A stretch of 12,552 bases of DNA from positions 1 through 12,552 of the forward strand of contig CAIYYW010000142.1 in the NCBI GenBank assembly GCA_903930515.1, in the 5' to 3' direction. Under the pieces are notes generated by a model that saw nothing but the letters and a program-made list of their open reading frames with translations, ran no database searches and was not told where the DNA came from. Source of the stretch: an uncultured delta proteobacterium (GTDB taxonomy: Bacteria > RBG-13-61-14 > DRUE01). The position numbers and the translations under genes are program-made. The first letter of the stretch is position 1. Each line of letters opens with the position of its first letter. Below are positions 1-12,552 of this stretch, in pieces.

Positions 1-962
1 GATTCCCGGCAAATCCCGCGCATCTTGAAAATTACCGGTTCCTGATCTCAGCCGCGGGCCAAATCCGCGCTTGGATGAAACAAAGGGGCTACACCGAAGT
101 CATAATCCCCTGCCTCAGCCCGGAAACGGTCCCGGACCTGAACCTGGAATCTTTTTCCCTCAAGTTCCAATCGGTCTTTGACCCGGAACATCAACAAGAG
201 CTTTTCCTGCAAACCTCCCCCGAACTGATGATGAAAAGGCTCCTGGCCGCGGGCCTCCAAAATATTTTTTATCTCGGACCCGCCTTCCGCCAGGGAGAGC
301 TTTCCAAAAATCATCACCCCGAATTCACCATCCTGGAATGGTACCGGACCGGCTCCGACTATCTTTTCCTGATGCGCGAGCTGGACCGGATGCTTTCCGG
401 GTTGTTCGGGATAAAAAAAATACCCCGGATCTCAATGAGAGAGGCCCTGAAAAAATCCGCGGGATGGGATTTCCGGGATTTGCAAGACCCGCGAAAATTC
501 GCCCGGTTCCTGCAAAAGAAAATTCCCGGACTGAAAACCAAGGGGAGCGATTGGCCGGAACTGTTTGAACGCGCACTACTCCAGTGGCTGGAACCCTGGC
601 TCGCGAAGCAGGACGCGGTTTTTGTTTATGACTGGCCCTCTCAACTATCAATGCAGGCCAAGCTCAAGGATGCCGACCCCATGCTCTGCCAGAGGTTTGA
701 ACTTTATCTTAAAGGAAGGGAAATCGCCAACGGATACACCGAAGCAACCGACCCCGGTCAAATGAAAAAAAGGCTCCAGGCCGAAATCCAAAAACGCAAA
801 AAACTCGGCCGGAAAAATATCCCGCTCCCGCGAAAATTCCTCCACAGCCTTGAACTCGGCCTGACCCCCTGCGCCGGGGTCTCCCTCGGACTAGACCGCC
901 TCTGTCTCGCCCTGCTCAACCTTGACTCCCTAAACCAGCTCCTGCCGTTCCGGGAAATCTGA
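1..962 (+). CDS. epmA: EpmA/PoxA-like EF-P beta-lysine ligase (LysRS paralogue), 5' partial
   Basis: The reading frame is open from base 3 to the TGA at 960-962, giving 319 visible residues. The Met codon at 75 is internal, because the residues before it (ENYRFLISAAGQIRAW) align with the first helix of EpmA. E. coli EpmA has 325 residues, so only about 5-10 are missing at the left edge. EpmA is a class II aminoacyl-tRNA-synthetase catalytic domain without the anticodon-binding domain; it activates (R)-beta-lysine and attaches it to a conserved lysine of elongation factor P. Visible signatures are TSPELMMKRLL, the motif 2 region AFRQGELSKNHHPEFTILEW (motif 2 Arg codon 288-290), the EIANGYTEATD segment and motif 3 CAGVSLGLDRL. 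The motif 3 residue matching E. coli Ala298 (Gly in LysRS) is Ser here (codon 882-884), which argues against a true LysRS. It is convergent with the operon that follows. efp and epmB are not in the window; they may lie to the left, but that is a guess. Confidence 0.88.
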   Translation, partial: FPANPAHLENYRFLISAAGQIRAWMKQRGYTEVIIPCLSPETVPDLNLESFSLKFQSVFDPEHQQELFLQTSPELMMKRLLAAGLQNIFYLGPAFRQGELSKNHHPEFTILEWYRTGSDYLFLMRELDRMLSGLFGIKKIPRISMREALKKSAGWDFRDLQDPRKFARFLQKKIPGLKTKGSDWPELFERALLQWLEPWLAKQDAVFVYDWPSQLSMQAKLKDADPMLCQRFELYLKGREIANGYTEATDPGQMKKRLQAEIQKRKKLGRKNIPLPRKFLHSLELGLTPCAGVSLGLDRLCLALLNLDSLNQLLPFREI

Positions 963-968
963 AAAAAA

Positions 969-981
969 CCCGGCAAGCGGG
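969..981 (-). terminator. possible weak intrinsic terminator of the leftward operon
   Basis: Read on the minus strand, CCCG (981-978), a 5-base loop and CGGG (972-969) form a 4-bp GC stem followed directly by seven T (968-962). It lies about 80 bases past the stop of the last operon gene, the right place for its terminator. The stem is short, and the T tract overlaps the last base of the stop codon of the convergent epmA-like gene. The fold is read by eye; no energy was calculated. Confidence 0.4.
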
Positions 982-1060
982 CAAGATTAAATAGGTGGCT
1001 GTCCCCTATTTTTTTCCCTCCGTCGGTTCGGCCGGGGGCAAGATTTAAACAGGCGGCTGT
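979..1060 (+). repeat. imperfect direct repeat of the REP-like unit (two copies)
   Basis: Copy 1 (979-1002) and copy 2 (1036-1060) share the unit GGGCAAGATT-AAA-AGG-GGCTGT. They differ by one inserted T and two T-to-C changes. The offset is about 57 bases. Copy 2 has only the left arm of the palindrome (as AAACAGG) and no right arm, and its last base is the first base of TTA 1060-1062, the stop codon of the leftward gene. This looks like decay or partial duplication of a dispersed repeat in the gap between two convergent genes. Confidence 0.6.
989..1011. repeat. REP-like palindrome, possible bidirectional terminator
   Basis: A perfect 7-bp inverted repeat, AAATAGG (989-995) and CCTATTT (1005-1011), encloses the 9-base loop TGGCTGTCC. 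On the minus strand it reads as a GGGGACAGCCACC core flanked by AAATAG/CTATTT arms. I recall similar short palindromes scattered through genomes of several uncultivated and deltaproteobacterial lineages, often associated with REP-associated tyrosine transposases (RAYTs); this is from memory and unchecked. The right arm runs into four more T (1012-1015), so it could also end transcription of the epmA-like gene on the plus strand. No transposase is in the window. Confidence 0.6.
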
Positions 1061-3384
1061 TAGCTCAGGCTGAAATATCTGCGCACGGCCCAGAGGCTTG
1101 CGAGGATCAGGACCAGGAGCCCGAAGCTGAGCCAGTTGTTCCAGAGCGGGAAATCCCTGGCGCCTACGATCTCTTCCAGAGATAGTTTGGGGAATTTGAG
1201 CTTGTCGGGCGATTGCGGTATTTTGAGCAGTTTGCCGTCTCCGGCCTGGGCGAGCAATTCCAACAAATCCGGTCGGATTGAAAGGTCTTCCATCTCCCGG
1301 GACTCTTTATCCACGGCCAGGATCGCCTGATCGGATCCGACCGCCATCCCGTCTTTTTCCGCATCGGCCTGGAAGCGGTATCCGCCGGGACAATTCAGGC
1401 TGATCTTGAACTGATATTTGCCGGGAGAAATTTCCTCGCCCTGGGCCGGCTGGGGGGAGCATCCTTGCGGGGCCTGGACCGATTTGAGGCTCACGCCGGC
1501 GCCGCTGATGGGATGATATGAGGAGTCCTGGAGCTGGAAATAAAAACTGACCTCCTCTCCCGGCTGGTAGCGGTCCCGGAAGGAGCTTAGGCTGACCGAT
1601 TTCATTTCCGGGTCGCGCATCAGCCACCGGAGGGACCTTTCCCAGAACAGTTGATAATATTTCCCGCTCCCCTGCTCTCCCTCCTGGGAGAATTTCCATT
1701 TCCAGAGGCTGTCGGTTGCGATCGTCATCACCCTTCCTTTTCCCGCTTCCCGCACCGCGATCAGCGGAGCCGCTTTTTCCTGCCGGTGCTCCACCAGCAC
1801 CACCGCGTCTGGTTTGGGCCGGAGCACCTGGTTGTAATTCTCAAGCACGCTGATCCCTTCCCACAGGCTCCGGTTTTCCGGCTCCCCTCCGGCCAGGCCG
1901 GTGATCGGATGCTGGACCCCGGAATCGGTGAGCTTGAGGCTCAAGCGGCCGGTCTGGTAGTTGGTTTCGCCGAAGCTGAAATCCACCGGCAGGATTTCCT
2001 CCAGAGGGTCGTTGAACGGGTCTTTGATGAAAGCACGGGGGCCCCCGATATAAATGAACGCGCCTCCTCCCTCCACCACATAATCGCGCAGGTTCCGGAT
2101 ATAAAGAGGGGACATATAGGCGTTGCCGAAAAAGTTCTGGAAGATCACCAGGTCAAAATTATGGAGTTCTTTTTGGAACAGCTCCTCGGTCGGGAACGGG
2201 ATCAGGGACAATTCCTGGTCCGAGCCGTGCGGGTCGTCCCACATTTCGCGCAGGATATAAAAGCTGACCAGGTCCACCGCGGGATTTTTTTCCAGGACCC
2301 GGCGGAGGAATTTTTCATCCCAACTGGGATTGCCCACGATGTAGAGCGCGCGGATCCGGTCGCGGAGGATGGTGAGCGGGAATACCCTGAGGTTGTTCTC
2401 CGCGCTCGCCTCCCCCTGGAACAGAGGGGTTTCCACCCGGAACAAAAACCTGCCCACCTGGTCCGGAATAAACTCCAGCTCCACCGTCTCCACCTTTCCC
2501 GGTTCAAGCTTGACGGTCTTGCTCGCGATCAGTTTGTCTTCCTGGAAAAGCTGGATCGGCGTCTGGTCGGAAATATTTCCCAGCGCCCTGACCTTGACCA
2601 CCACCACGAACGGGTTCTTGACAAAGCCGTACCCGTCGTGCTGGATTCCGACAATGGCCAGGTCCCTAAGCTCCGGTTCCGAACCGGCCAGGATGGGATA
2701 AATTTTGCCGAGTCCCTGCAGGTTTTTCTTCAATTCCTTTTCCGCGCCGGCTTTATTTTTTTGATTCTCGGGAGAGCCCAGCTCTGAAAGCAGGCCCTGA
2801 TCCGCGCCGTCGGAAATGATCGCGACCCCGGAAAGCTGTTGGTTGCCGAGCTCGTCCCGGAGCCGGGAAAGGGATTCCAGGATTTCGGTATGAGAACCTT
2901 CGGCTTTAAGTTCGGGCTGATCCAGGAATCCGGCCGGGAGCGGGTTCGGTTTCTGGTCAAAGCTGAACCAGCGCAGGTCGTAATCCTCTTTGAGGCCGTT
3001 GAAAAATTCCCGGTGGTCCTTGATCCAACTCAAGCCGGACCCGATCCGGGTCTGGTCTCCCGCAGTCCTGACCTTCATACTCTCCGAGCTGTCAATCAGG
3101 ATCGCGATCGGGCTTTTCAATTTCCGGGTCTTGGCCAACCTCAGCTCCGGCTCCAGGAACAGACTGAGCGTGAGCAAAAGCGCGATCAGGTGCAGGGCCA
3201 GGATCAACCCTTTCCTTCCCCGGCCCGAAAGCGGCTTGACCATAAAATACGCGGCCGCGGCAAAGAGCGCGATCAGCGCGACGCAGATCCATTCGGACCC
3301 GGGATTGAGGGCGGCGAAGTGGATCAGGAGCCGGTCGTATCCCTTGGTCTCAACGCCCAAATATTCCAGGACCTTGAAGATCAT
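1060..3384 (-). CDS. membrane VWA protein with GATase-like and Ig-like domains (774 aa), last gene of operon
   Basis: Two N-terminal membrane segments (residues about 32-50 and 59-78) lead into a von Willebrand factor A domain with a complete MIDAS metal site: DSSES at 98-102, Thr166 and Asp192. Next come a beta-rich CARDB/Ig-like stretch (about 240-335), a class I glutamine-amidotransferase-like (flavodoxin-type) domain (about 340-470, with a GGGAFIYIGGPRAF turn), and another Ig-like domain (about 595-690) holding Cys642 and Cys665. A final membrane segment (about 750-768) leaves a short basic tail. The GATase-like fold shows no obvious catalytic Cys-His-Glu triad, so it is more likely a binding domain. 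With paired N-terminal helices the VWA and later domains probably face the periplasm. Its ATG overlaps the DUF4159 stop by 4 bases (ATGA, 3381-3384), with only a distant AAGGAA upstream, suggesting translational coupling. It resembles VWA/GATase-like proteins found beside MoxR-DUF58-BatA genes. The exact role is unknown. Confidence 0.82.
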   Translation of the reverse strand: MIFKVLEYLGVETKGYDRLLIHFAALNPGSEWICVALIALFAAAAYFMVKPLSGRGRKGLILALHLIALLLTLSLFLEPELRLAKTRKLKSPIAILIDSSESMKVRTAGDQTRIGSGLSWIKDHREFFNGLKEDYDLRWFSFDQKPNPLPAGFLDQPELKAEGSHTEILESLSRLRDELGNQQLSGVAIISDGADQGLLSELGSPENQKNKAGAEKELKKNLQGLGKIYPILAGSEPELRDLAIVGIQHDGYGFVKNPFVVVVKVRALGNISDQTPIQLFQEDKLIASKTVKLEPGKVETVELEFIPDQVGRFLFRVETPLFQGEASAENNLRVFPLTILRDRIRALYIVGNPSWDEKFLRRVLEKNPAVDLVSFYILREMWDDPHGSDQELSLIPFPTEELFQKELHNFDLVIFQNFFGNAYMSPLYIRNLRDYVVEGGGAFIYIGGPRAFIKDPFNDPLEEILPVDFSFGETNYQTGRLSLKLTDSGVQHPITGLAGGEPENRSLWEGISVLENYNQVLRPKPDAVVLVEHRQEKAAPLIAVREAGKGRVMTIATDSLWKWKFSQEGEQGSGKYYQLFWERSLRWLMRDPEMKSVSLSSFRDRYQPGEEVSFYFQLQDSSYHPISGAGVSLKSVQAPQGCSPQPAQGEEISPGKYQFKISLNCPGGYRFQADAEKDGMAVGSDQAILAVDKESREMEDLSIRPDLLELLAQAGDGKLLKIPQSPDKLKFPKLSLEEIVGARDFPLWNNWLSFGLLVLILASLWAVRRYFSLS

Positions 3385-4172
3385 TTGGGGCGCCGTTTCC
3401 TTCGCTCGGAAATGAACGGGCTGTGCACCGCGTCTTTTTTATAGTTGCCGCACAGGCCGTAATAAACCAGGTTGACCCAAAGCCGGATCGCGGTTTCGCG
3501 CTGGTTTTCTCCGCCCGGGGTCACCGGGTATCGGAATCCCTGTCCGGAATTCTGCTCAATCGCCCCGGCCAGATCGTTCTGGGAATAGATCAGGGTGGTC
3601 AGGTCCCCGCGGTCAATTCCCCAGAGGTTGGGGACAGAGGCCTTCCGTCCCGGGGCCCGGTCCAAAAGGTAGTAGGTTTGAAACACGGTATGGTCCGGAG
3701 GGAGCGGCCTCAATTTTTCTCCCGGGAAAATCCGCTCCAGCTCTCTCCGGAAGGACCGGTCAAAGCCGCTGTCCAATTCCCCGAGCGCGTCATCCGCGAG
3801 CAGGAGACCGCCGGCGTCAAACCATCTTCGCAGGCGCTGGATTTCGTCATCGGAAAAAGGCTCAAACTCGTTCTCGCCGCTCAGGTATAGGAACGGGTAT
3901 CCGAAGGCGTCGTTGGTATTGAGCTTGACCTCCACCCGCTCCGGGCTGGCGGGCACGCTGGTGCGGCTGTTGATGATCCCGGCGAGCGATCGGGCCACTC
4001 CCGGCCTGGGGTTCCAGCCCAGCCCCTTGCCGTAAACGATTTGCGCGAAGAAAAAGTCAAACTTCACCTGCTTGGGCTGGGAAGGGAATTGCGGCCATCC
4101 CTTGCGGGAGAGCATCAGAGAGCCCAGTCCGGCGCCGCATATTTTAAAAAAATCTTTCCGCTTCATTTTCAT
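3381..4172 (-). CDS. DUF4159 family protein with Tat-like leader (263 aa)
   Basis: The mature part (about residues 37-241) matches DUF4159 as I know it: GYPFLYLSGENEFEPFSDDE, then RLRRWFDAGGLLLADDALGE, then FRRELERIFPGEKLRPLPPD and finally AIRLWVNLVYYGL. This family has a GATase/flavodoxin-like fold and usually sits in MoxR-DUF58-BatA operons; its biochemical role is unknown. The N-terminus (MKMKRKDFFKICGAGLGSLM) resembles a twin-arginine export signal (consensus SRRxFLK), but the second Arg is Lys and the leading Ser is Lys, so Tat export is probable rather than certain. The C-terminus is strongly basic (SERRKRRPK). The start is ATG 4172, overlapping the previous stop as ATGA (4169-4172), with AGGAG 9 bases upstream; a second Met two codons later is an alternative. 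It overlaps the next gene by 4 bases. Confidence 0.83.
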   Translation of the reverse strand: MKMKRKDFFKICGAGLGSLMLSRKGWPQFPSQPKQVKFDFFFAQIVYGKGLGWNPRPGVARSLAGIINSRTSVPASPERVEVKLNTNDAFGYPFLYLSGENEFEPFSDDEIQRLRRWFDAGGLLLADDALGELDSGFDRSFRRELERIFPGEKLRPLPPDHTVFQTYYLLDRAPGRKASVPNLWGIDRGDLTTLIYSQNDLAGAIEQNSGQGFRYPVTPGGENQRETAIRLWVNLVYYGLCGNYKKDAVHSPFISERRKRRPK

Positions 4173-6316
4173 TCCCAGCCGCTCCTGGCCAGGAGCAGGA
4201 TTTCCATTCCCAGCAAAATAATCAGGCCGAGCAGGAATCCGTGATGATAGGGCTTCTTGACCAGGCTGGTCTTACCCCGGTCCTCCGGGGTTTTCAGATT
4301 TTCCTCGGACTGGACATAAACCTGGTCGGCCAAGACCAGCTTTTTCAAATCCTTGACCGATATTTTCCGGAAGTCCGATTCAGTCGGGTCGGAGTTCACG
4401 GCCAGGATGAAATCGGCGTTTCCCTCCTGCCTCGGCTCCGGTCCGGGCAGATACCAGAAGTAATAAATACCGGGCTCCTCCAGCCGGGGAATCCGGATCT
4501 TTCCCTGCCCGCCTTCCTTCTCCGGGCTTAGGCGCAGTTCCGCTCCCCGGCTGGACTTGACCAAGGCCGAGGTCTTTTCGCCGGGAAGGGTCAGCTCAAT
4601 CTGGTCTCCGACCCGGGCGCCTTTGGCCCCGATGTCAAACAGCGAGCGGGCCAGGTAGAGCGAGGCCTGGTAAAAAATCGGAAGATAGGAGGGATAGATG
4701 CAGAGGTCGTTCCAGTCCTGGTTCAGGGTTGAGGCCAGGATCAGGGCGATCCCGGAGCCGAAACTTTTTTCCAGGAGCATCGGGGTTCCGTCCGCGAGCT
4801 TGAGGACCACGCGGGAGCGGGGCACCAGTTCCTGGTAAAACATAAAATACTTGTAAAAATTGGCCACGGCCGGGTCGGCTCCTTTGGCCGAGGCAAAGGG
4901 AGACAGGATCGGGTGCCGTCCGGGATCGGCGATGAAGCTGGAATCCAGATGCAAGGGCTGAAGCTCGCTCTTGCCCTCGGCTCCGGCGAAAGAAATCTTC
5001 AGCTCGCGGATTTCGCGCGGGAGCAGGTCCCCGAGCAGTTTATTATAATGGTCCGCGTCCACATTGTTCCCGAGTCCGATCAGGAGGCCGCCTCCGTTGG
5101 ACACGAAATTTTTTATCCGGTCCGCTTCGGCCTGGTCCAGGATCCGGCAATCGGCCAGGATCAGAACCTGGTAATTGCGGAGGTCGGTCTGGGCGAACCC
5201 GCTCTCGCTCACCACCTCCGGGTCAATCCGGCTCAGGGCGTAAAGCCTGGGGTTGAGGGCGCGCTCCAGGAAATAGCTTCCCCGGCTTAAAGGTTCGCGG
5301 GACCAGCTCCCGTCCACGATCAGGGCCTTGACCCGTCCTCCTCCCCGGAGATGGAAATAGCTGAGGTTGTCCATATCCAAACTGTCCCGGTTCTCCAGTT
5401 CCAGTTTTCCCTCCGCGCTGAAATTCTCGCGCAGGCTGACCAAAAAAGATTTGTCCGCGCTTGCCCAGCTTTTCGCGGCAGCGGTTCCGCGGCTGATCAC
5501 CTGTCCGCCCAGGCTTAAATTCAGGCGCGCCTCCTGGTCCTGGGCGGAGAAGTTGTACACCCGGGCCAAAACCTTGACCGACTCCTCACCGCTCCCGCTG
5601 ATCCGGTTCAGGTCCACCGGCCCCAGCGTGTAATTGGGGTCCAGGTTCCGGCCGGAAAGGTCGTAGAAATAAATCTCGCCCGGGAAATGCTCAAGAACGG
5701 CCTGGTCGGAGAAGGACTCTTTTTGCAAATCCGTGAACACCACGATTTTTTTGGATAGGGACCCGGACCTGGAAAGCATCTGCTCTGCGCGGCTGAGCGC
5801 GGAAAGCATCCGGGCTTTTTCAAAACCGGGTTGGATTTTTTGCAGGGCGGCCCGGAGCTGTTCGCGGTTTTTGTCGAGCGGGATTTCTTTTCCCGAGGCC
5901 GGGAAGACCATGCCGACATAATCGTAATCCGGGAGCTGGTTGAGCAGGGAGGAGGCGCTGTTTTGGGATCGCTCAAACAGGCTCTTCCCGGACCGGTCCC
6001 GTCTCATACTCAGGGAATCGTCCAGGACCAGCGCCAAAGAATTCTGCTCCGATCCGAGCGCGAGGGATGGGATGGATTCCATCCGATAGGGAGCGGCCAG
6101 GGCCAGGCTGAACGCCCCGATCGCGAGCATCCGGACCAGGAGCAAAAGGTATTCCCAAAACCTCCTCCGCCTCCGGGTGGCCTTTTCGCTCTGGAGCAAA
6201 AACCGGATCGCCCCGAACGGGATGACCTTGGCCTTGCGCCTCCTCCAGAGATGAATGATCAGCGGGACCAGCATCCCGAGCAGGCCGAGCAGGAACAAAG
6301 GGTTTGCGAATTTCAT
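4169..6316 (-). CDS. BatA-type membrane VWA protein with GATase-like domain (715 aa)
   Basis: The N-terminus MKFANPLFLLGLLGMLVPLI followed by IHLWRRRKAKVIPFGAIRFL is the classic BatA N-terminal membrane motif, and a second membrane segment lies at about 55-76. The VWA domain follows, with MIDAS residues DDSLS (99-103) and Asp196 (VVFTDLQ). The usual MIDAS Thr is not evident: the expected region reads EKARMLSALSRA. A CARDB-like beta domain (about 245-325) precedes a GATase-like domain (about 328-560, with a NGGGLLIGLG turn), then a beta domain and a C-terminal membrane segment (about 692-710). The frame is open upstream to 6454, but I start at ATG 6316 because it opens the BatA motif exactly and gives the same ATGA overlap (6313-6316) as other junctions. 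There is no good Shine-Dalgarno, so translation is probably coupled to the DUF58 gene. BatA proteins work with MoxR and DUF58 in Bat systems, linked to aerotolerance and envelope stress in Bacteroides and Leptospira. Confidence 0.86.
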   Translation of the reverse strand: MKFANPLFLLGLLGMLVPLIIHLWRRRKAKVIPFGAIRFLLQSEKATRRRRRFWEYLLLLVRMLAIGAFSLALAAPYRMESIPSLALGSEQNSLALVLDDSLSMRRDRSGKSLFERSQNSASSLLNQLPDYDYVGMVFPASGKEIPLDKNREQLRAALQKIQPGFEKARMLSALSRAEQMLSRSGSLSKKIVVFTDLQKESFSDQAVLEHFPGEIYFYDLSGRNLDPNYTLGPVDLNRISGSGEESVKVLARVYNFSAQDQEARLNLSLGGQVISRGTAAAKSWASADKSFLVSLRENFSAEGKLELENRDSLDMDNLSYFHLRGGGRVKALIVDGSWSREPLSRGSYFLERALNPRLYALSRIDPEVVSESGFAQTDLRNYQVLILADCRILDQAEADRIKNFVSNGGGLLIGLGNNVDADHYNKLLGDLLPREIRELKISFAGAEGKSELQPLHLDSSFIADPGRHPILSPFASAKGADPAVANFYKYFMFYQELVPRSRVVLKLADGTPMLLEKSFGSGIALILASTLNQDWNDLCIYPSYLPIFYQASLYLARSLFDIGAKGARVGDQIELTLPGEKTSALVKSSRGAELRLSPEKEGGQGKIRIPRLEEPGIYYFWYLPGPEPRQEGNADFILAVNSDPTESDFRKISVKDLKKLVLADQVYVQSEENLKTPEDRGKTSLVKKPYHHGFLLGLIILLGMEILLLARSGWE

Positions 6317-7230
6317 CTCGGCCGCGCCCTCCGGGCGGTCAGCGATCTCCGGAGCAGGTATCCGGAAAGGATCTGGGCCGGGTTTTGTTCGGTCCGGAAC
6401 AGTTGATAGTCCGCGAGCAATTCCTGTCCCACCCGCTCCAACTGCTCCTGCCATCCGCGGATCAATTTCAAATATTCCTTGCGGAGCTGAGACGGCTCCA
6501 ATAAAATCCTGCCTTCCCCTTCCAACCCTTCAAACCAGCTCAGTTGCGAGAAGGGGAATTCCAGCTCCTCGCGCGTGAGCACCTGGAAAAAGGCCAGCTC
6601 GTTCCCGCGATGCCTTGCCAGCTTCAAACTTTTTTCCACTTCCAGTTCCGGGTCAAAGAAATCCGAGATCACGATCACCAGGCTTTTCTGCTTGAACCGG
6701 CTGACCAGGTCAAACAGGACCGGCGCGAATTTGGTTTCGCCCTCGGGTTTGGTCCGGACCAGGAATTCCGACAGGGCCTTGAAATGCCGCTCGCCGGACC
6801 GGCCGGGCAGCCATTCCATTTTGCCGTCCCGGATCACGGCCAGCCCGACCGCGTCCCCCTGTCCCAGGAGCAGGTAGGCCAGCCCCGCGGCCAGCGTCCT
6901 TCCGTATTCAAACTTGCTTGGCTGGTTCCCGGGCGCGTAAGCCATTGAGCCGCTCGCGTCCAGGACGATATAAGATTGGATCCGGGTCTCGTCCTCAAAT
7001 TGCTTGATAAAAAAACGGTCGGATTTCGCGAACAGCTTCCAGTCAATCATCCGGATTTCGTCCCCGGCCGTGTAGGGCTTATGCTCGGAAAATTCCACGC
7101 TGCTCCCGCGGTGCCGGGAATGATGAAGCCCGATCAATGCTCCTTCCGCGATCTCGCGCGCCTTGAGCTCCAAGTCGTGCAACCGGGAGATGACTTCCAG
7201 GGCTTCCTGGCTTTGGGCCGGACCGGTCAT
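6313..7230 (-). CDS. DUF58 domain VWA protein, MoxR partner (305 aa)
   Basis: The DUF58 signature fills residues about 40-83: RGSSVEFSEHKPYTAGDEIR, then MIDWKLFAKSDRFFIKQFED. A VWA-like domain follows with an intact MIDAS: DASGS at 91-95, Thr166 in GETKFAP and Asp190 in VIVISDFFD. There are no membrane segments or signal peptide, so it is cytoplasmic, as usual for this short form. DUF58 proteins are nearly always encoded next to a MoxR AAA+ ATPase, and the pair is thought to act like the RavA-ViaA or CbbQ-CbbO pairs, with the VWA protein bringing the ATPase to its client. ATG 7230 overlaps the MoxR stop (ATGA, 7227-7230) and has GGAG 4 bases before it. The last residues are Arg-rich (RRSLTARRARPR). 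Confidence 0.93.
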   Translation of the reverse strand: MTGPAQSQEALEVISRLHDLELKAREIAEGALIGLHHSRHRGSSVEFSEHKPYTAGDEIRMIDWKLFAKSDRFFIKQFEDETRIQSYIVLDASGSMAYAPGNQPSKFEYGRTLAAGLAYLLLGQGDAVGLAVIRDGKMEWLPGRSGERHFKALSEFLVRTKPEGETKFAPVLFDLVSRFKQKSLVIVISDFFDPELEVEKSLKLARHRGNELAFFQVLTREELEFPFSQLSWFEGLEGEGRILLEPSQLRKEYLKLIRGWQEQLERVGQELLADYQLFRTEQNPAQILSGYLLRRSLTARRARPR

Positions 7231-8252
7231 TTGGCTCCGGAATCCTCCCGGACCGCGTCCAGTAGTTGGTTGATCACTTCCGTGGTGGTGACCCCTTCGG
7301 CCTCGGCGCGGTAGTTGAGGATGATCCGGTGCTTGAGCACGGGCTGGGCCAGCGCCCTCACATCCTCTCCGGTGACCGCGAACCTTCCGTTGATCAAAGC
7401 GCGGGCCTTTCCTCCCAGGATCAGATACTGGCTCGCCCTGGGCCCGGCTCCCCAGGCCATCCAGTCCTTGACAAAACCGGGCGCGGAATCGTCACCGGGC
7501 CGGCTGGCCTTGACCAGCTTGACCGCGTAGGCGATCACATAGTCCGCCACCGGCACCCGCCGCACCAGTTCCTGCAATTCCAAAATCCGCTTCTGGTCCA
7601 GGATCCGCTTAAGATCGGGCCGGGCCGAGCCGGTGGTGGCGCGGACGATCCGGATCTCTTCTTCCAGGCTCGGGTAGTTGACATCAATCTGGAACATAAA
7701 CCGGTCCAGTTGCGCCTCGGGCAGCGGGTATGTGCCTTCCTGCTCAATCGGGTTCTGGGTGGCGAAGACCAGGAAGGGCAGGTCCAGATGATAGGTGGCG
7801 CCGCCCGCGGTCACCTGGTATTCCTGCATGCTTTGCAAGAGCGCGGCCTGGGTCTTGGGGCTGGTCCGGTTGATCTCGTCCGCCAGGATCACATTGGCGA
7901 AGATCGGCCCTTTGACAAAGCGGAACTCGCGGCTGGCCTTGGCCGCGTTCTCTTCCAGGATCTCGGTGCCGGTGATATCCGAAGGCATCAGGTCGGGCGT
8001 GAACTGGATCCGGTTGAAGCTCAAATTCAAAACCTGCGCCAGGGTGGAGACCATCAGGGTCTTGGCCAGCCCGGGCACTCCCACGAACAAGCCGTGTCCG
8101 CGGCTGAAGAGCGAGATCAGGAACAGGTCTATCACCTGGTCCTGCCCTATGATCACCTTGCGCATCTCCTTGAGAATATCCTCCCGGCTCCGGGCCATCT
8201 CCGCGACCGCCTGAAGCTCGTCCTGATTTGCCTCTGTTTTTACTTCTTCCAA
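7227..8252 (-). CDS. MoxR-family AAA+ ATPase (341 aa), TTG start
   Basis: All AAA+ elements of the MoxR family are visible: Walker A GVPGLAKT (58-65), Walker B VILADE (121-126), sensor 1 in ATQNP (164-168), the arginine-finger motif PEAQLDRFMF with Arg184, and sensor 2 GPRAS with Arg272. The family-typical TQNPIEQEGTYPLPEAQLDR stretch is intact, so the ATPase is probably active. It is cytoplasmic and expected to form hexamers that remodel a client with VWA/DUF58 partners. Context fits the MoxR-proper type. The start is TTG (8252-8250), 2 bases after the upstream stop; the codon choice is supported by GGGAGG five bases upstream and by an N-terminal acidic helix ahead of the conserved EDILKEMRKVIIGQDQVIDL. 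The next Met (residue 19) would trim that helix. Without functional data I give no gene symbol beyond the family name. Confidence 0.95.
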   Translation of the reverse strand: MEEVKTEANQDELQAVAEMARSREDILKEMRKVIIGQDQVIDLFLISLFSRGHGLFVGVPGLAKTLMVSTLAQVLNLSFNRIQFTPDLMPSDITGTEILEENAAKASREFRFVKGPIFANVILADEINRTSPKTQAALLQSMQEYQVTAGGATYHLDLPFLVFATQNPIEQEGTYPLPEAQLDRFMFQIDVNYPSLEEEIRIVRATTGSARPDLKRILDQKRILELQELVRRVPVADYVIAYAVKLVKASRPGDDSAPGFVKDWMAWGAGPRASQYLILGGKARALINGRFAVTGEDVRALAQPVLKHRIILNYRAEAEGVTTTEVINQLLDAVREDSGAK

Positions 8253-8254
8253 GT

Positions 8255-9853
8255 TTACCTCCCAGGTTTTTTTAGGATCTCCAAATTTTTTTGCAGCTCC
8301 GAGGCCCTGGCCGAATCGCCCTGCTTCTGATATAGCTGGATCAAATTCCGATAGGGGATCGGGTTGAAGGGATTCTGCTCCAGGCCGGTTTCGTAGCTGG
8401 AAACCGCATTTTTAGTATCTCCCGAGGACCAGTATGCCTGCCCCAGATAGATATAGGTAGTGCTGTAATTCGGGTAAATCTCCGCGGATTGTTTCAGGAT
8501 GGAAATCGCGTCCGGGTAATTGCCGGCGAGCGCCTGCCCCAGCCCGAGCTTGTTCATCACCCTGGGATCATAAGGCTCCAGGTTTAGGGCTTTTTTATAT
8601 TCCACCACCGCGGCCTGATAAAATTTGCGGTCTCTGAGCAGATCGCCGAGCCGGACATATTCCCCGGTCTTGTCCTCGCCGGCTTCCGGTTTCTCTTCCG
8701 CCTCTTCCAAGCCCTCCTGCTCCTTGAATTCCAGCCGCATCACCACGGCCCCGGGGATGGCCGGCCAATTTTTCGCCAGCACCCATTTCTGCCAGTTCTG
8801 CCAGATGGAATTGAAGTCCTGTCCGCAAACCATCCCCATCGCTTCCTTGTCGGTTTTGCCCTGCCCAAGCAGGTCAAACATTTTGAACCAACTGTCCCGG
8901 CCGCAATTCCGCCTCAGGTAATCAACCATCGTGGCCACTTCCGAGAAGGCCAGTTGGCCCTGCTTGGGGGTCTTGAACTGGGCGAAGGTGGGGGACATCT
9001 GGCGGAAAGAGATCAGCTCATTATTTTTGATCGCGGTCACCAGCAGGCTTTTGGGCACCGGGCTTAACTCCCCGGCCTGGCCGCGGAAGCTCATCTCCTC
9101 GTATTTGGCCAGCCCTTCGTGGAACCAGACCGGGATGGATTCCCCGGCCCGGCTGTAAACGAAGAAGTGGACCAGCTCGTGGCTGAAGGTGACCAGGTAA
9201 TCGTATCCGAAGGCGAGCGCGCGCGGGGAGGTGAGCATCAGCCGCCGGTATTTGCAGACCGCGATCGTGCCCGAGTCCTTGATCATCTTCTCCTCCAGGC
9301 CCACCCCGTTGGCCAGCTCCGCGGCGTTGGGATATATTTCCACCAGGATCTTCCCGCCTTTGGGAGTGAAATCAAAATCCTGGGAAAGAGCCGCGTAGGC
9401 CTGCTCCAATGCGGCCAGCCCGGGCTGGGCCAGCAATTCATCGCGCGGGTCCGTCCATCTCATAAGGAAATGATCGCTGGAAGCCTCGCCGGGATGAGCA
9501 AATAATTCAGCCAGCTTTTCCAGCCGGTCGTGAAATTTTTTCTCCTTGGATTGCGAGCCGGTTTTCAGTTCCAGGCTTTTATCCAGCTCCGCGAGCGATC
9601 TCCGGTAATCCGCGCGATGGAACCAGTATTGGGCCAGGAAATAGTAAGCGTCCGCCTGCTGATCCTTGTCGGTCTCGGCGCCCATCATCTCTTCCACCTT
9701 GGCCGCGGCCTCTTCCGCGTCCTGGTATTTCCAATCGTCCAGGGCGTTGTATCCCTGGTTCAGCAAAATGGACAGCCCGGTTGAGGGTTGAGCGGTCAGG
9801 CAGAATAATAACCCCAGCCCGATCCCGGCCGCAACGATGAATTTATTCCTCAT
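8255..9853 (-). CDS. secreted peptidase MA-like gluzincin with C-terminal TPRs (532 aa)
   Basis: A signal peptide (MRNK, then hydrophobic residues 5-20; cleavage near 22-27) predicts export. There is a Cys at 18 but no proper lipobox. Residues about 30-115 are helical and TPR-like. The middle (about 130-360) is a peptidase MA-like metallopeptidase domain: HELVH at 225-229 supplies two zinc ligands and the catalytic Glu226, and WFHEGLAKYEE supplies the likely third ligand Glu246, the gluzincin arrangement. The FSEVATMVDYLRRNCGRDSW stretch is the usual helix after the active site. An acidic linker (about 376-398) joins it to three or four TPRs (about 398-528), with patterns such as KALNLEPYDPRVMNKLGLGQ. 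Substrate is unknown; it probably cleaves or scaffolds proteins in the periplasm. ATG 9853 overlaps the previous stop (ATGA, 9850-9853) with AAGAGG 8 bases upstream. Two bases separate it from the MoxR gene. Confidence 0.85.
   Translation of the reverse strand: MRNKFIVAAGIGLGLLFCLTAQPSTGLSILLNQGYNALDDWKYQDAEEAAAKVEEMMGAETDKDQQADAYYFLAQYWFHRADYRRSLAELDKSLELKTGSQSKEKKFHDRLEKLAELFAHPGEASSDHFLMRWTDPRDELLAQPGLAALEQAYAALSQDFDFTPKGGKILVEIYPNAAELANGVGLEEKMIKDSGTIAVCKYRRLMLTSPRALAFGYDYLVTFSHELVHFFVYSRAGESIPVWFHEGLAKYEEMSFRGQAGELSPVPKSLLVTAIKNNELISFRQMSPTFAQFKTPKQGQLAFSEVATMVDYLRRNCGRDSWFKMFDLLGQGKTDKEAMGMVCGQDFNSIWQNWQKWVLAKNWPAIPGAVVMRLEFKEQEGLEEAEEKPEAGEDKTGEYVRLGDLLRDRKFYQAAVVEYKKALNLEPYDPRVMNKLGLGQALAGNYPDAISILKQSAEIYPNYSTTYIYLGQAYWSSGDTKNAVSSYETGLEQNPFNPIPYRNLIQLYQKQGDSARASELQKNLEILKKPGR
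8258..8263 (-). promoter_or_regulatory. Shine-Dalgarno GGGAGG fixing the TTG start of the MoxR gene
   Basis: On the minus strand GGGAGG (8263-8258) directly touches the TAA stop (8257-8255) of the upstream gene. It is followed after five bases (TAAAC) by TTG. This is the strongest ribosome-binding site I see at any junction of the operon and the only junction without an ATGA overlap. It supports re-initiation at TTG for the ATPase. Confidence 0.7.
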
Positions 9854-12552
9854 TGCACCAGCCTCTTATAATAATCCCGGATCAAATCCTGATACTCCTT
9901 GGGGGAATCTTCCCGCATCGCCTTCAAGATTTTCTTGCGCAATTCCGCGGGGTCCTGGTTCTCGTCCGGGCCGGGGATTTTGATCTTCTCGCTCTTGAAC
10001 CCAAGTCCGCCCTGGCCGGAACCTCCGGGACGGGGGCTGCCCTTGGTCGGCATATTCATTGACACCCCTTCTCCGCCCTTGGCGCCGCTCTTGACCTTGT
10101 CCATAAATTTCTGCAGCCCGTTCTCCGCCTGCTCCAGCCAGTGTTTGGATTCCTTTTCCGCGTTCAGGCCCAGGTCCGGGTTTGAAAGCTCCAATTCCCC
10201 CTGCGCGTCTTTCATCTTCAGGTCCGCCTGTCCCAGGTGATCCATGATTTTGGGAGGCTGTACCGGGAGTTGCTCAAAGACCCCGCCCAGCTCTTTCATC
10301 AATTCACCCAACCGCCCCTCTATCGCGGCCTGGTTTTTCCCCAAACCCTGGAGCCGCGCCTGGTCCGGACCGGAAAGGGAGCCCTGCATTTCCTTGCCCA
10401 GGGCGGAAGCGGTTTTCCTGGCCGAGCCGGCCTTGGCTTGGCCGGAGTTGCAGCTGGATTCAAAGGCCCGGCTTTGTTCCGATTGGTCCGCGATCCCCTT
10501 GGAGGCGCTCTTGAAAGTATCCTTCATCTGCCCGAGTTCCTGCTCCAGGTTCCCGAGCTTCCCGGCCGCGGAATCAAACTGGTTCTGGTCCAGGTCCTTC
10601 TTCGCCATCTCAGCCTCGCGAGACATCTGCAATAATTTGTTCGCCAACTGGGTCCGCTCCTGCAAATATTTCTGCACCCGGTTCCCGTCCTGGTTCTGCT
10701 TCGGGTCGGCCTTATTCAATTCGTTCATCTGGTCCCGCATCAGTTCGCTCAACTCGTCCAACTGGGCCTTAAGCCCGGCCTTCTTTTTATCCGCCTGAGC
10801 CATGGCCTGCTCCTGTGCGGAAACCTTCCTCTGATATATCGGGTCGGTCTCCTCAATCAGTTTCTGCTCCTCTTGCTTGAGCTTGCGGATTTTTTCCAGC
10901 CCCTGGGTCAGCCCGTTCATCAGCCCGGCGGAAAGGCTGGAACCCATTTTATCCGAGCCTTCCTGTAACTGGTTCAGCATCTCGTTGAGCGAGGCCATAA
11001 AATCGTTTGCGTCCTGCATCGCGTTGCTCAGGTCGCGGTCGTGCACCGCCTGCCGGAATTTTTCCAGCTTGTTGAAGACATCCCCCGCGCCCGTCTTCTT
11101 GATCGCGTCCGCGTTGACATACTCGTCCGGGAGGGTCTGCCCCATTTCGGAGAGTCGGGCCAGGAACTCCTGGTAAAGCGCCTTCAACTCGTCCAGCTTG
11201 GCCTCAATCTGCTTGAGCAGTTCCGGGTCTTTGGTCCGCTGATATTGCTCCATCAGCCGGGACAGCTCCTTCTGGCCTTCCTTCAAACGGTCGCCCAGGG
11301 AGACCAGGAAATCCATCCGCTGTTTCTGAAGCTGCTTGTCCCAGAACAGCACATCCTGCTCCATCCGGTCCGAGGCCTTCCTGCGCAGAGAAGAGGTCGC
11401 GGACTGCGACTTGGATTTATTGGTATTCTCCCGATCCCGGATCATCTGACGGTAGCGGTCAAGGCTTTCCGCGATCATCTCCTTCACGATGTAAGGGGAA
11501 TAGGTGTCCTTCTCCACCCGGGGCTGAAGGCTTTGGAGCAGCGCGCTGATCCGGTTGAAATCGCTCATCAGCGACGCCTCGGTCTGCCAGTATTGGGCCG
11601 GGTCAATTTTTTTAAGGTCGGCTTGCAAATTATTACCCAGGAAATTGATCAGGGTTTCAAACAACTCCTGCTCCGCGCTGAGGATCTTCTCGTGCTCCTT
11701 GAGCGGGCTGAAAATCTCCAGAGAGCGGGTCTGGCTCCGGCCGATCCCGGGGCCGGTGACATTATTGTTGTCCCTGGCCTCAATGTAGTAAGCCACTTTC
11801 TCGCCGGGCAAAAAATTTTCCTTCAAGATGTTCCAGCCGTATTCCTGCTCCGTCTCCAGCTCCGCCGGCCTGAACTGCTTGATCGGGATCCGGCTCTCTC
11901 TTCCCCGGCTGCTGAACACCAGGTCCACCGAGTCCAGGCCGTAATCGTCATTGGCCCGCAACTTCAAGCTCAATCCCTCTTCCTCGTTGATCTCCAGGTC
12001 GCGGTCCGGCTGGATCAGCTCCACCTGCGGGACCTGGTCCGGGAGCGCGCTGATCTGGTTGAACTTCGGCTCCGACCAGACCCGGCCCTCCTTGTCCTCC
12101 GCTTCAAAGCGGTACTGCCCCGACCGGCTGATGGTCATTCTGGCCCGGAGTTCCCTCCCCTTCACCTCCGCTTCTATCCGGCCCTGGGGTTGAAGCTGAA
12201 TCCAGGCCCGGGTCAATTCCAGCGGACTTTTCGCCCGGATTTCAACCTCGCCCCCGGCAAGGCCGCTCACCGACCCGTCCGAGCCTTCAATATGCTTCGG
12301 CGTCAGACCGGAATAGGCCGGGAACCGGTAATCCATCGCCAGGTCGTATAGTTCAAGCGGACGGCTCACCTTCATCAACTGCTTGTCCCGGCCGCCCCGG
12401 AGGCCCTTGAGCCAGACCGACTGTCTCATTGAATCGGGGAATCCCGGGAGCAAAAAAATAAATGCGAGCCAGGCCGCCAACAGCGCCAACCCGGCCGCTC
12501 CCGGGAACCGCAGCAGTTTCGGGTTCGCAACCTGTTCCAGGTTAAGCCTGGA
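9850..12552 (-). CDS. DUF4175-type membrane protein with Ig-like domains and long coiled coil, 5' partial
   Basis: The frame is open to the right edge (900 codons visible), so the TTG at 12489 is not the true start: 21 further in-frame codons reach base 12552. The visible part begins with a membrane segment (LALLAAWLAFIFLLPGF). A first beta/Ig-like domain follows (about 12350-12040), starting YRFPAYSGLTP with a Gly-rich GLAGGEVEIRAKSPLELTRA core. A second Ig-like domain (about 12030-11700) contains ANDDYGLDSVDLVFSS and VAYYIEARDNNNVTGPGIGR, the pattern I associate with DUF4175 proteins. Roughly 590 residues of Glu/Lys/Gln/Leu/Met-rich coiled coil fill 11700-9950, with a Gly-rich stretch near 10080-10000. 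A conserved-looking tail, EYQDLIRDYYKRLVQ, ends the protein. It is likely membrane-anchored with the rod outside the cytoplasm. It is the first visible operon gene; its promoter and N-terminal helices lie outside the window. DUF4175 assignment is from remembered pattern, function unknown. Confidence 0.78.
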   Translation of the reverse strand, partial: SRLNLEQVANPKLLRFPGAAGLALLAAWLAFIFLLPGFPDSMRQSVWLKGLRGGRDKQLMKVSRPLELYDLAMDYRFPAYSGLTPKHIEGSDGSVSGLAGGEVEIRAKSPLELTRAWIQLQPQGRIEAEVKGRELRARMTISRSGQYRFEAEDKEGRVWSEPKFNQISALPDQVPQVELIQPDRDLEINEEEGLSLKLRANDDYGLDSVDLVFSSRGRESRIPIKQFRPAELETEQEYGWNILKENFLPGEKVAYYIEARDNNNVTGPGIGRSQTRSLEIFSPLKEHEKILSAEQELFETLINFLGNNLQADLKKIDPAQYWQTEASLMSDFNRISALLQSLQPRVEKDTYSPYIVKEMIAESLDRYRQMIRDRENTNKSKSQSATSSLRRKASDRMEQDVLFWDKQLQKQRMDFLVSLGDRLKEGQKELSRLMEQYQRTKDPELLKQIEAKLDELKALYQEFLARLSEMGQTLPDEYVNADAIKKTGAGDVFNKLEKFRQAVHDRDLSNAMQDANDFMASLNEMLNQLQEGSDKMGSSLSAGLMNGLTQGLEKIRKLKQEEQKLIEETDPIYQRKVSAQEQAMAQADKKKAGLKAQLDELSELMRDQMNELNKADPKQNQDGNRVQKYLQERTQLANKLLQMSREAEMAKKDLDQNQFDSAAGKLGNLEQELGQMKDTFKSASKGIADQSEQSRAFESSCNSGQAKAGSARKTASALGKEMQGSLSGPDQARLQGLGKNQAAIEGRLGELMKELGGVFEQLPVQPPKIMDHLGQADLKMKDAQGELELSNPDLGLNAEKESKHWLEQAENGLQKFMDKVKSGAKGGEGVSMNMPTKGSPRPGGSGQGGLGFKSEKIKIPGPDENQDPAELRKKILKAMREDSPKEYQDLIRDYYKRLVQ

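What the first reader, a model, noticed from the sequence alone, without database searches (positions are those of the whole stretch)
1060..12552. Expanded MoxR-VWA envelope operon unlike the classical Bat operon
Seven genes in a row combine MoxR, DUF58 and a BatA-type protein with DUF4175, a gluzincin-TPR protein, DUF4159 and another VWA/GATase-like protein. No BatB, BatC or BatD is recognisable. MoxR plus VWA partners are known to mature or remodel protein complexes (RavA-ViaA, CbbQ-CbbO, NorQ-NorD). The large periplasmic set here suggests an envelope assembly or quality-control machine with an unknown client.
Basis: partly seen in the sequence, partly recalled or inferred. Interest (0 to 1): 0.6.

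Follow-up and report, generated by a model that had tools for sequence, protein, structure and literature searches.

The report
Seven-gene MoxR ATPase envelope operon
This is an extended version of a bacterial gene set, already linked in Rhizobium to an intact cell envelope, in which an ATP-driven protein-remodelling pair inside the cell is encoded together with five envelope proteins; the same set recurs in several distant phyla, but the protein it works on is still unknown.

Summary
Seven co-directional genes (DUF4175, Peptidase_MA/TPR, MoxR, DUF58, BatA-VWA, DUF4159, VWA/GATase-like) form an operon-like array with five 4-nt ATGA overlaps; the DUF4175 gene is cut by the contig end. It is not a degenerate Bat operon: the same genome has a complete Bat locus and a third MoxR-DUF58 locus elsewhere. 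Nor is it a one-genome oddity. The identical order occurs in all three held genomes of its phylum, in Candidatus Entotheonella and in two other MAGs; the seven families recur in another order in Gemmatimonadota, subsets in Planctomycetota, Verrucomicrobiota and Elusimicrobiota. Alphaproteobacteria carry MoxR-DUF58-[BatA fused to DUF4159]-GATase-like, matching the RL3499-RL3502 operon of Rhizobium leguminosarum, whose mutants have envelope and shape defects. So the core is known and the expanded form is a variant. Two links look new: DUF4159 sits directly beside DUF4175 in MoxR-free loci of other phyla, and in Rhodobacter sphaeroides the envelope regulator CenR activates both a DUF4175-family gene and a MoxR gene. 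Best reading: a MoxR-DUF58 motor acts on inner-membrane VWA proteins and DUF4159-DUF4175 to keep the envelope sound. The client is unknown; the mechanism is inferred.

The parts
9850..12552 (-). DUF4175 (TIGR02302-like) inner-membrane/periplasmic coiled-coil protein; N-terminus cut off by the contig end
   Evidence: Pfam PF13779 47.6 bits; one TM left in the truncated protein, full-length homologues have several N-terminal TMs; conserved C-terminal motif
8255..9853 (-). Exported gluzincin (Peptidase_MA_2, HELVH...HEGLAKYEE) with TPR repeats
   Evidence: Pfam PF13485 63.6 bits plus TPR families; N-terminal signal segment and HExxH motif
7227..8252 (-). MoxR-family AAA+ ATPase, cytosolic
   Evidence: AAA_3 204.6 bits and AAA_lid_2; Walker A GVPGLAKT and Walker B LADE near-invariant in 64 rows; PDB 2R44 E=1.6e-81
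6313..7230 (-). DUF58 protein with VWA-like domain and intact DxSxS, no TM: probable cytosolic adaptor of MoxR
   Evidence: DUF58 133.9 bits, VWA_2 below cut-off; D91, S93, S95, D190 at least 98% conserved in 91 rows; no TM
4169..6316 (-). BatA-type protein: two N-terminal TMs with a strongly positive loop, VWA domain, GATase-like region, C-terminal TM
   Evidence: PF07584 62.4 bits, VWA_2 46.9 bits, NCBIfam two_anch 69.1 bits; topology and corrected start; MIDAS conserved
3381..4172 (-). DUF4159, exported (Tat-like RRxFL signal in relatives), GATase/GIFT-like fold without a conserved Cys
   Evidence: PF13709 138.4 bits; alignment; AlphaFold pLDDT 85, PDB 4I66 Z 31.3
1060..3384 (-). Second membrane VWA protein: two N-terminal TMs, VWA with invariant MIDAS, beta-sandwich and GATase-like regions, C-terminal TM
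   Evidence: Weak GATase1_like 23.2 bits; DxSxS and D192 invariant in 22 rows; topology; model pLDDT 84
968..982 (-). Terminator-like hairpin plus T run after the last gene
   Evidence: Consensus scan only; shuffles give 0.7 such sites, so weak

Best explanation
An envelope-maintenance machine of the RL3499-RL3502 kind in an expanded form. Inferred working: MoxR hexamers in the cytosol use DUF58 as their VWA adaptor. The pair acts on the cytosolic, positively charged loops of two inner-membrane proteins (BatA and the VWA/GATase-like protein) whose VWA domains face the periplasm and bind clients through their MIDAS. ATP-driven movement is passed through these membrane proteins to a periplasmic module, DUF4159 bound to the long coiled-coil protein DUF4175. 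The exported gluzincin-TPR protein trims or removes faulty clients. The output is correct assembly or repair of an outer-membrane or peptidoglycan-linked component. Shown: gene set, conserved order, intact motifs, separateness from Bat, DUF4159-DUF4175 pairing. Predicted: compartments. From literature on relatives: envelope phenotype and CenR co-regulation. Inferred: all contacts, direction of force, role of the protease, and the client.
For: Same seven-gene order in three held genomes of the phylum, Candidatus Entotheonella (L021) and MAGs L034 and L086; all seven families in another order in Gemmatimonadota-type loci (L020, L097, L098, L100, L084, L075). Alphaproteobacterial MoxR-DUF58-[BatA+DUF4159]-GATase-like, matching RL3499-RL3502; RL3499 is a MoxR important for membrane integrity and morphology (PMC3893208), and RL3499 and RL3500 are non-essential on minimal medium but growth-defective on TY (PMC5118466). 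DUF4159 directly beside DUF4175 in 11 of 18 MoxR-free loci (Pfam confirms one of two tested). TIGR02302 is DUF4175 (E=7e-272); CenR binds upstream of and activates RSP_0730 (TIGR02302) and RSP_1024 (putative MoxR) in R. sphaeroides (PMC9275681). MIDAS and Walker motifs conserved. Topology. TatC and Omp85 in all three genomes of the phylum. In NorQD the MIDAS binds the client and the VWA plugs the MoxR pore (PMC9976466).
Against: No client or physical contact is shown. The Vanderlinde 2011 paper could not be read, and the identity of locus L016 with RL3499-RL3502 rests on gene order and on reports by others. RSP_1024 was not matched by sequence to this operon and is listed with TM segments, unusual for a MoxR. 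In Alphaproteobacteria DUF4175 is unlinked, and the gluzincin is often missing from the cluster, so those parts may be accessories. Periplasmic placement rests on hydropathy and positive-inside counts.
Confidence: 0.5

Rival explanations
1. DUF4175 (with DUF4159) is itself the client: the MoxR-DUF58-BatA-VWA machine exists to assemble or open the long DUF4175 coiled-coil protein, which is the working structural element.
For: DUF4159-DUF4175 pairs exist without MoxR in several phyla, so they form an independent module; DUF4175 is the largest part and sits at either end of the cluster; MoxR genes often sit beside their client's genes (NorQD, CbbQO; general knowledge).
Against: Gene order alone cannot tell client from partner; in Alphaproteobacteria DUF4175 is unlinked from MoxR, and in loci without MoxR nearby it may need no such machine.
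Confidence: 0.25
2. A Bat-like periplasmic stress system: a diverged duplicate of the Bat operon with the same function.
For: Shared MoxR, DUF58 and BatA-type N-terminus with VWA; TPR protein in both.
Against: The genome keeps a complete separate Bat operon; the window MoxR is 52% identical to the R. leguminosarum one but 45% to its own Bat MoxR and falls apart from it in the tree (99/97, long branches); no BatB/C/D/E here; BatA here is about 715 aa with a GATase-like region versus 329 aa.
Confidence: 0.12
3. A MoxR-vWA ternary biological-conflict system (antiviral or suicide) as described by Kaur et al. 2020 (PMC7159879).
For: MoxR also scores 45.6 bits against bpMoxR PF20030; a protease is present.
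Against: No beta-propeller, VMAP, iSTAND or FtsH component or swapped effector; components are the same across phyla rather than displaced; AAA_3 scores far higher (204.6 bits).
Confidence: 0.03
4. Metalloenzyme maturation like NorQD or CbbQO, with an unlinked cytosolic or membrane enzyme as client.
For: General behaviour of MoxR-VWA pairs (PMC9976466).
Against: No metalloenzyme was seen recurring next to the cluster; five of seven products are envelope proteins; the mutant phenotype reported for relatives is envelope integrity.
Confidence: 0.08

Closest known systems
RL3499-RL3502 operon of Rhizobium leguminosarum (Vanderlinde et al. 2011, J Bacteriol 193:2684)
   Same: MoxR, DUF58, BatA-type and DUF4159 domains and a GATase-like membrane protein in the same order; MoxR 52% identical.
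   Different: In Alphaproteobacteria BatA and DUF4159 are one polypeptide, and DUF4175 and the gluzincin-TPR gene are not in the cluster.
Bacteroides-type Bat operon (MoxR-DUF58-BatA-BatB-BatC-BatD-BatE)
   Same: MoxR, DUF58, BatA N-terminus plus VWA.
   Different: Small BatA/BatB (about 330 aa), BatC, BatD and BatE; none here, while a full copy lies on another contig of the same genome.
NorQ-NorD / CbbQ-CbbO / RavA-ViaA
   Same: MoxR AAA+ ATPase with a VWA partner; likely the same motor principle.
   Different: There a single VWA partner serves a known client; here two further VWA proteins are membrane-anchored and the client is unknown.
PDB 4I66 (Hoch_4089, Haliangium ochraceum)
   Same: Solved DUF4159 domain, 40% identical, Z 31.3.
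   Different: A structure of the domain only, no function given.
TIGR02302 family (alphaproteobacterial DUF4175, e.g. RSP_0730)
   Same: Full-length PF13779 match in S. meliloti and a similar C-terminal motif.
   Different: Encoded away from the MoxR operon.

Membership tests
RL3499-RL3502-type MoxR envelope operon | Adjacent MoxR, DUF58, BatA/DUF4159 and GATase-like membrane protein in this order | tested here: met
   BatA and DUF4159 are split in the window
RL3499-RL3502-type MoxR envelope operon | Loss causes envelope sensitivity and shape defects | not testable with these tools
   Known only for R. leguminosarum (PMC3893208, PMC5118466)
RL3499-RL3502-type MoxR envelope operon | MoxR closer to RL3499-type MoxR than to Bat MoxR | tested here: met
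   52% versus 45% identity; separated in the tree at 99/97, but the Bat and third-locus rows are long branches
Classical Bat operon | BatB, BatC and BatD (BatE) beside BatA | tested here: not met
   None in the window; present on C63 of the same genome
MoxR AAA+ ATPase | AAA_3 plus AAA_lid_2 with intact Walker A and B | tested here: met
MoxR-vWA ternary conflict system | Beta-propeller/VMAP/iSTAND/FtsH third component with variable effectors | tested here: not met
NorQD/CbbQO-like chaperone | VWA adaptor inserted in the MoxR pore, remodelling a client | not testable with these tools
   Complex prediction not available here; MIDAS residues conserved
Catalytic class-I glutamine amidotransferase | Conserved Cys-His-Glu triad in the GATase-like domains | tested here: not met
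   No Cys or His among the invariant or near-invariant columns of DUF4159 or the GATase-like protein

The most novel reading that the evidence does not exclude
MoxR-DUF58, two periplasmic-facing VWA membrane proteins, DUF4159 and DUF4175 form one trans-envelope machine conserved across many diderm phyla, in which ATP hydrolysis in the cytosol drives DUF4175-DUF4159 in the periplasm to build or repair the outer-membrane/peptidoglycan linkage, coordinated with Tol-Pal through the CenKR regulon in Alphaproteobacteria.
Probability: 0.25. Interest if true: 0.8.

Novelty: new variant of a known kind. Interest (0 to 1): 0.4.

Why it matters
If right, it joins three families of unknown function (DUF4159, DUF4175/TIGR02302 and the VWA-GATase-like protein) to a MoxR motor with an envelope phenotype in a genetically tractable relative. 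The open question of what such MoxR ATPases do in the envelope then becomes testable in Rhizobium, Caulobacter or Rhodobacter. An ATPase that delivers work across the inner membrane to periplasmic VWA proteins would be a rare arrangement.

Tried and rejected
Reading as a degenerate Bat operon: rejected, a full Bat operon is elsewhere in the genome. Conflict system: rejected on gene content. Catalytic GATase: no conserved Cys. DUF4159-seeded scan of genome contigs: the alignment was too diverged, so DUF58 was used; the sample is therefore biased to DUF58 relatives and many contigs are truncated. Foldseek with the whole GATase-like model gave OST48 (human oligosaccharyltransferase) as top hit (E=6e-11, TM 0.22/0.38), too weak for more than a shared GATase/GIFT-plus-sandwich layout. 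Tn-seq paper on DUF4175: AdvA of Acinetobacter carries a DUF4175 annotation but was not compared by sequence here. CenR follow-up papers (PMC10746171, PMC10470753) do not mention these genes. No recurrent extra gene that could be the client was seen next to the cluster by eye in the fetched loci, but this was not a systematic search. The 5-kb insert between MoxR and DUF58 in L034 looks like unrelated metabolic cargo. The Vanderlinde 2011 paper is not held.

Full report
What is there. The window is a complete contig (C142, 12552 b) of a genome of 3.65 Mb in 401 contigs. The minus strand from 12552 to 1060 encodes, in order of transcription, DUF4175 (5' end cut by the contig end), a Peptidase_MA_2 metallopeptidase with TPRs, MoxR, DUF58, a BatA-type VWA protein, DUF4159 and a second membrane VWA protein with a weak GATase1_like match. 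The BatA start given by the longest ORF (6454) is wrong; the homologous start is at 6316. Five of six junctions are then 4-nt ATGA overlaps and the remaining gap is 2 nt. A terminator-like hairpin follows the last gene but is hardly more than chance. The converging plus-strand gene at 3-962 is EpmA/GenX-like and not part of the set.

Separate from Bat. The genome has three MoxR genes. Contig C63 carries MoxR, DUF58, two short BatA-type VWA proteins of 329 and 335 aa, a TPR protein, BatD (114.6 bits) and a TPR-SH3 protein, i.e. a full Bat operon. Contig C394 carries MoxR, a DUF58 protein of 411 aa and a 750-aa membrane protein that looks like a transglutaminase (the last by eye). The window cluster is therefore a third system. 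In a tree of 36 MoxR proteins the window sequence groups with those of the same cluster type, and the two paralogues of its own genome fall outside at 99/97 support, though on long branches; identity is 52% to the R. leguminosarum MoxR against 45% to its own Bat MoxR.

How widespread. In the relative G001 the cluster follows genes that look like ruvC-ruvA-ruvB (by eye). A DUF58-seeded scan of species genomes gave 80 loci. With home-made profiles, 78 distinct loci were scored: 8 hold all seven families, 16 hold DUF4159 and 20 hold DUF4175 within the fetched stretch, many contigs being truncated; 32 hold only DUF58 with or without MoxR. The exact order DUF4175-peptidase-MoxR-DUF58-BatA-DUF4159-GATase-like is found in the window phylum, in Candidatus Entotheonella (L021) and in two MAGs (L034, with a 5-kb insert after MoxR, and L086); Gemmatimonadota use (DUF4159-)GATase-like-peptidase-DUF4159-MoxR-DUF58-BatA-DUF4175; Planctomycetota and Verrucomicrobiota use MoxR-DUF58-BatA-GATase-like-DUF4175, and two further loci of the same genomes as planctomycete loci L030 and L032 have peptidase-DUF4159-MoxR-DUF58-BatA-DUF4175. 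Two MAG labels (Acidimicrobiia L075, Gammaproteobacteria L084) group with Gemmatimonadota in the MoxR tree and may be mislabelled. Alphaproteobacteria (Rhizobium, Sinorhizobium, Azospirillum, Paracoccus) carry MoxR-DUF58-[BatA+DUF4159]-GATase-like.

Relation to what is known. [quoted passage not shown] the paper itself is not held). From my own memory of its abstract, the operon is a MoxR-like ATPase, a DUF58 protein and two transmembrane proteins. RL3499 is described as an MRP-type MoxR important for membrane integrity and morphology (PMC3893208), and in insertion sequencing RL3499 and RL3500 are dispensable on minimal medium and growth-defective on TY (PMC5118466). That locus L016 corresponds to RL3499-RL3502 is inferred from gene order and annotation. 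Text searches for DUF4159, DUF4175 and TIGR02302 found three papers, none describing this cluster.

Two further links. First, of 20 additional DUF4159 loci in other genomes, two lie in a MoxR cluster; of the 18 others, 11 have a DUF4175-like gene directly beside DUF4159 and one more has it about 2 kb away; Pfam confirmed the DUF4175 call in one of two proteins tested, so a coiled-coil contribution to the home-made profile cannot be ruled out in the rest. Second, the alphaproteobacterial TIGR02302 protein is a full-length DUF4175 (E=7e-272) with a similar C-terminal motif, and in Rhodobacter sphaeroides the essential envelope regulator CenR, which also activates tolQ, mlaC and cell-wall genes, directly activates RSP_0730 (TIGR02302) and RSP_1024 (putative MoxR) (PMC9275681). 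RSP_1024 was not checked by sequence.

Anatomy. MoxR and DUF58 have no TM and should be cytosolic. BatA and the GATase-like protein each have two N-terminal TMs separated by a basic loop and a C-terminal TM, which by the positive-inside rule puts their VWA domains in the periplasm; DUF4159 relatives have an RRxFL Tat-like start (the window itself has KRKDFF) and the peptidase has a signal segment. TatC and Omp85 are present in all three genomes of the phylum. MIDAS residues are conserved in DUF58, BatA and the GATase-like protein, and Walker motifs in MoxR. The peptidase keeps HELVH and HEGLAKYEE. The DUF4159 model (pLDDT 85) matches the solved 4I66 at Z 31.3 and, more weakly, amidotransferases and the IFT52 N-terminal domain (Z 9 to 10), without a conserved catalytic Cys.

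Mechanism. From NorQD, where the VWA domain is modelled as plugging the MoxR ring and its MIDAS as binding the client (PMC9976466), I infer that DUF58 is the cytosolic adaptor of MoxR here and that the pair acts on the basic loops of the two membrane VWA proteins, passing work to DUF4159-DUF4175 in the periplasm. The gluzincin would remove faulty clients. Gene set, order, motifs and separateness from Bat are shown; compartments are predicted; envelope function is carried over from relatives; contacts, force direction and client are inference.

Verdict. The finding is real and well conserved. Its core is already described in Rhizobium; the expanded form with DUF4175 and the gluzincin is a variant not found in the literature held. 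The main gain is tying DUF4159 and DUF4175 to a MoxR envelope system.

Noticed in passing
L013:5038-15357 (own genome, contig C63): Complete classical Bat operon in the same genome, with two extra genes between DUF58 and BatA (one with TPR and weak PPIase/SurA-like matches).
   Followed up: yes
Genomes G020, G025, G033 (genomes of L058, L072, L093): DUF4159 is expanded to 10-12 matches per genome in a Latescibacterota and two Planctomycetota MAGs, often two domains in one ORF; function unknown.
   Followed up: no
window 9850-9950; L103:1441-4098: The last 30 or so residues of DUF4175 carry a motif (IL..MR....P..Y...I..YY.RLV) resembling the end of alphaproteobacterial TIGR02302, possibly a docking tail.
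   Followed up: partly
L100:4407-5486 and L075:4607-5719: Gemmatimonadota-type clusters have an extra exported protein of about 360-370 aa between the GATase-like and peptidase genes, with no Pfam match.
   Followed up: partly
L034:4956-9636: A 5-kb block of metabolic genes (ROK-like, ABC binding protein, amidohydrolase, Xaa-Pro peptidase-like, by eye) sits between MoxR and DUF58, splitting the operon.
   Followed up: no
L019:5094-5711 (Corynebacterium crudilactis plasmid pCRULAC1): A DUF4159-annotated protein on a resistance plasmid of an actinobacterium, next to dihydrofolate reductase and without a MoxR gene in the stretch shown.
   Followed up: no
L015:9377-11445 (Sinorhizobium meliloti): The GATase-like gene reads as two ORFs overlapping by 4 nt; a true split or a frameshift.
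   Followed up: no
window 3-962; L006:2082-2645: An EpmA/GenX-like lysyl-tRNA-synthetase paralogue converges on the operon; in relative G001 an EF-P-like gene lies near the same cluster (by eye).
   Followed up: no
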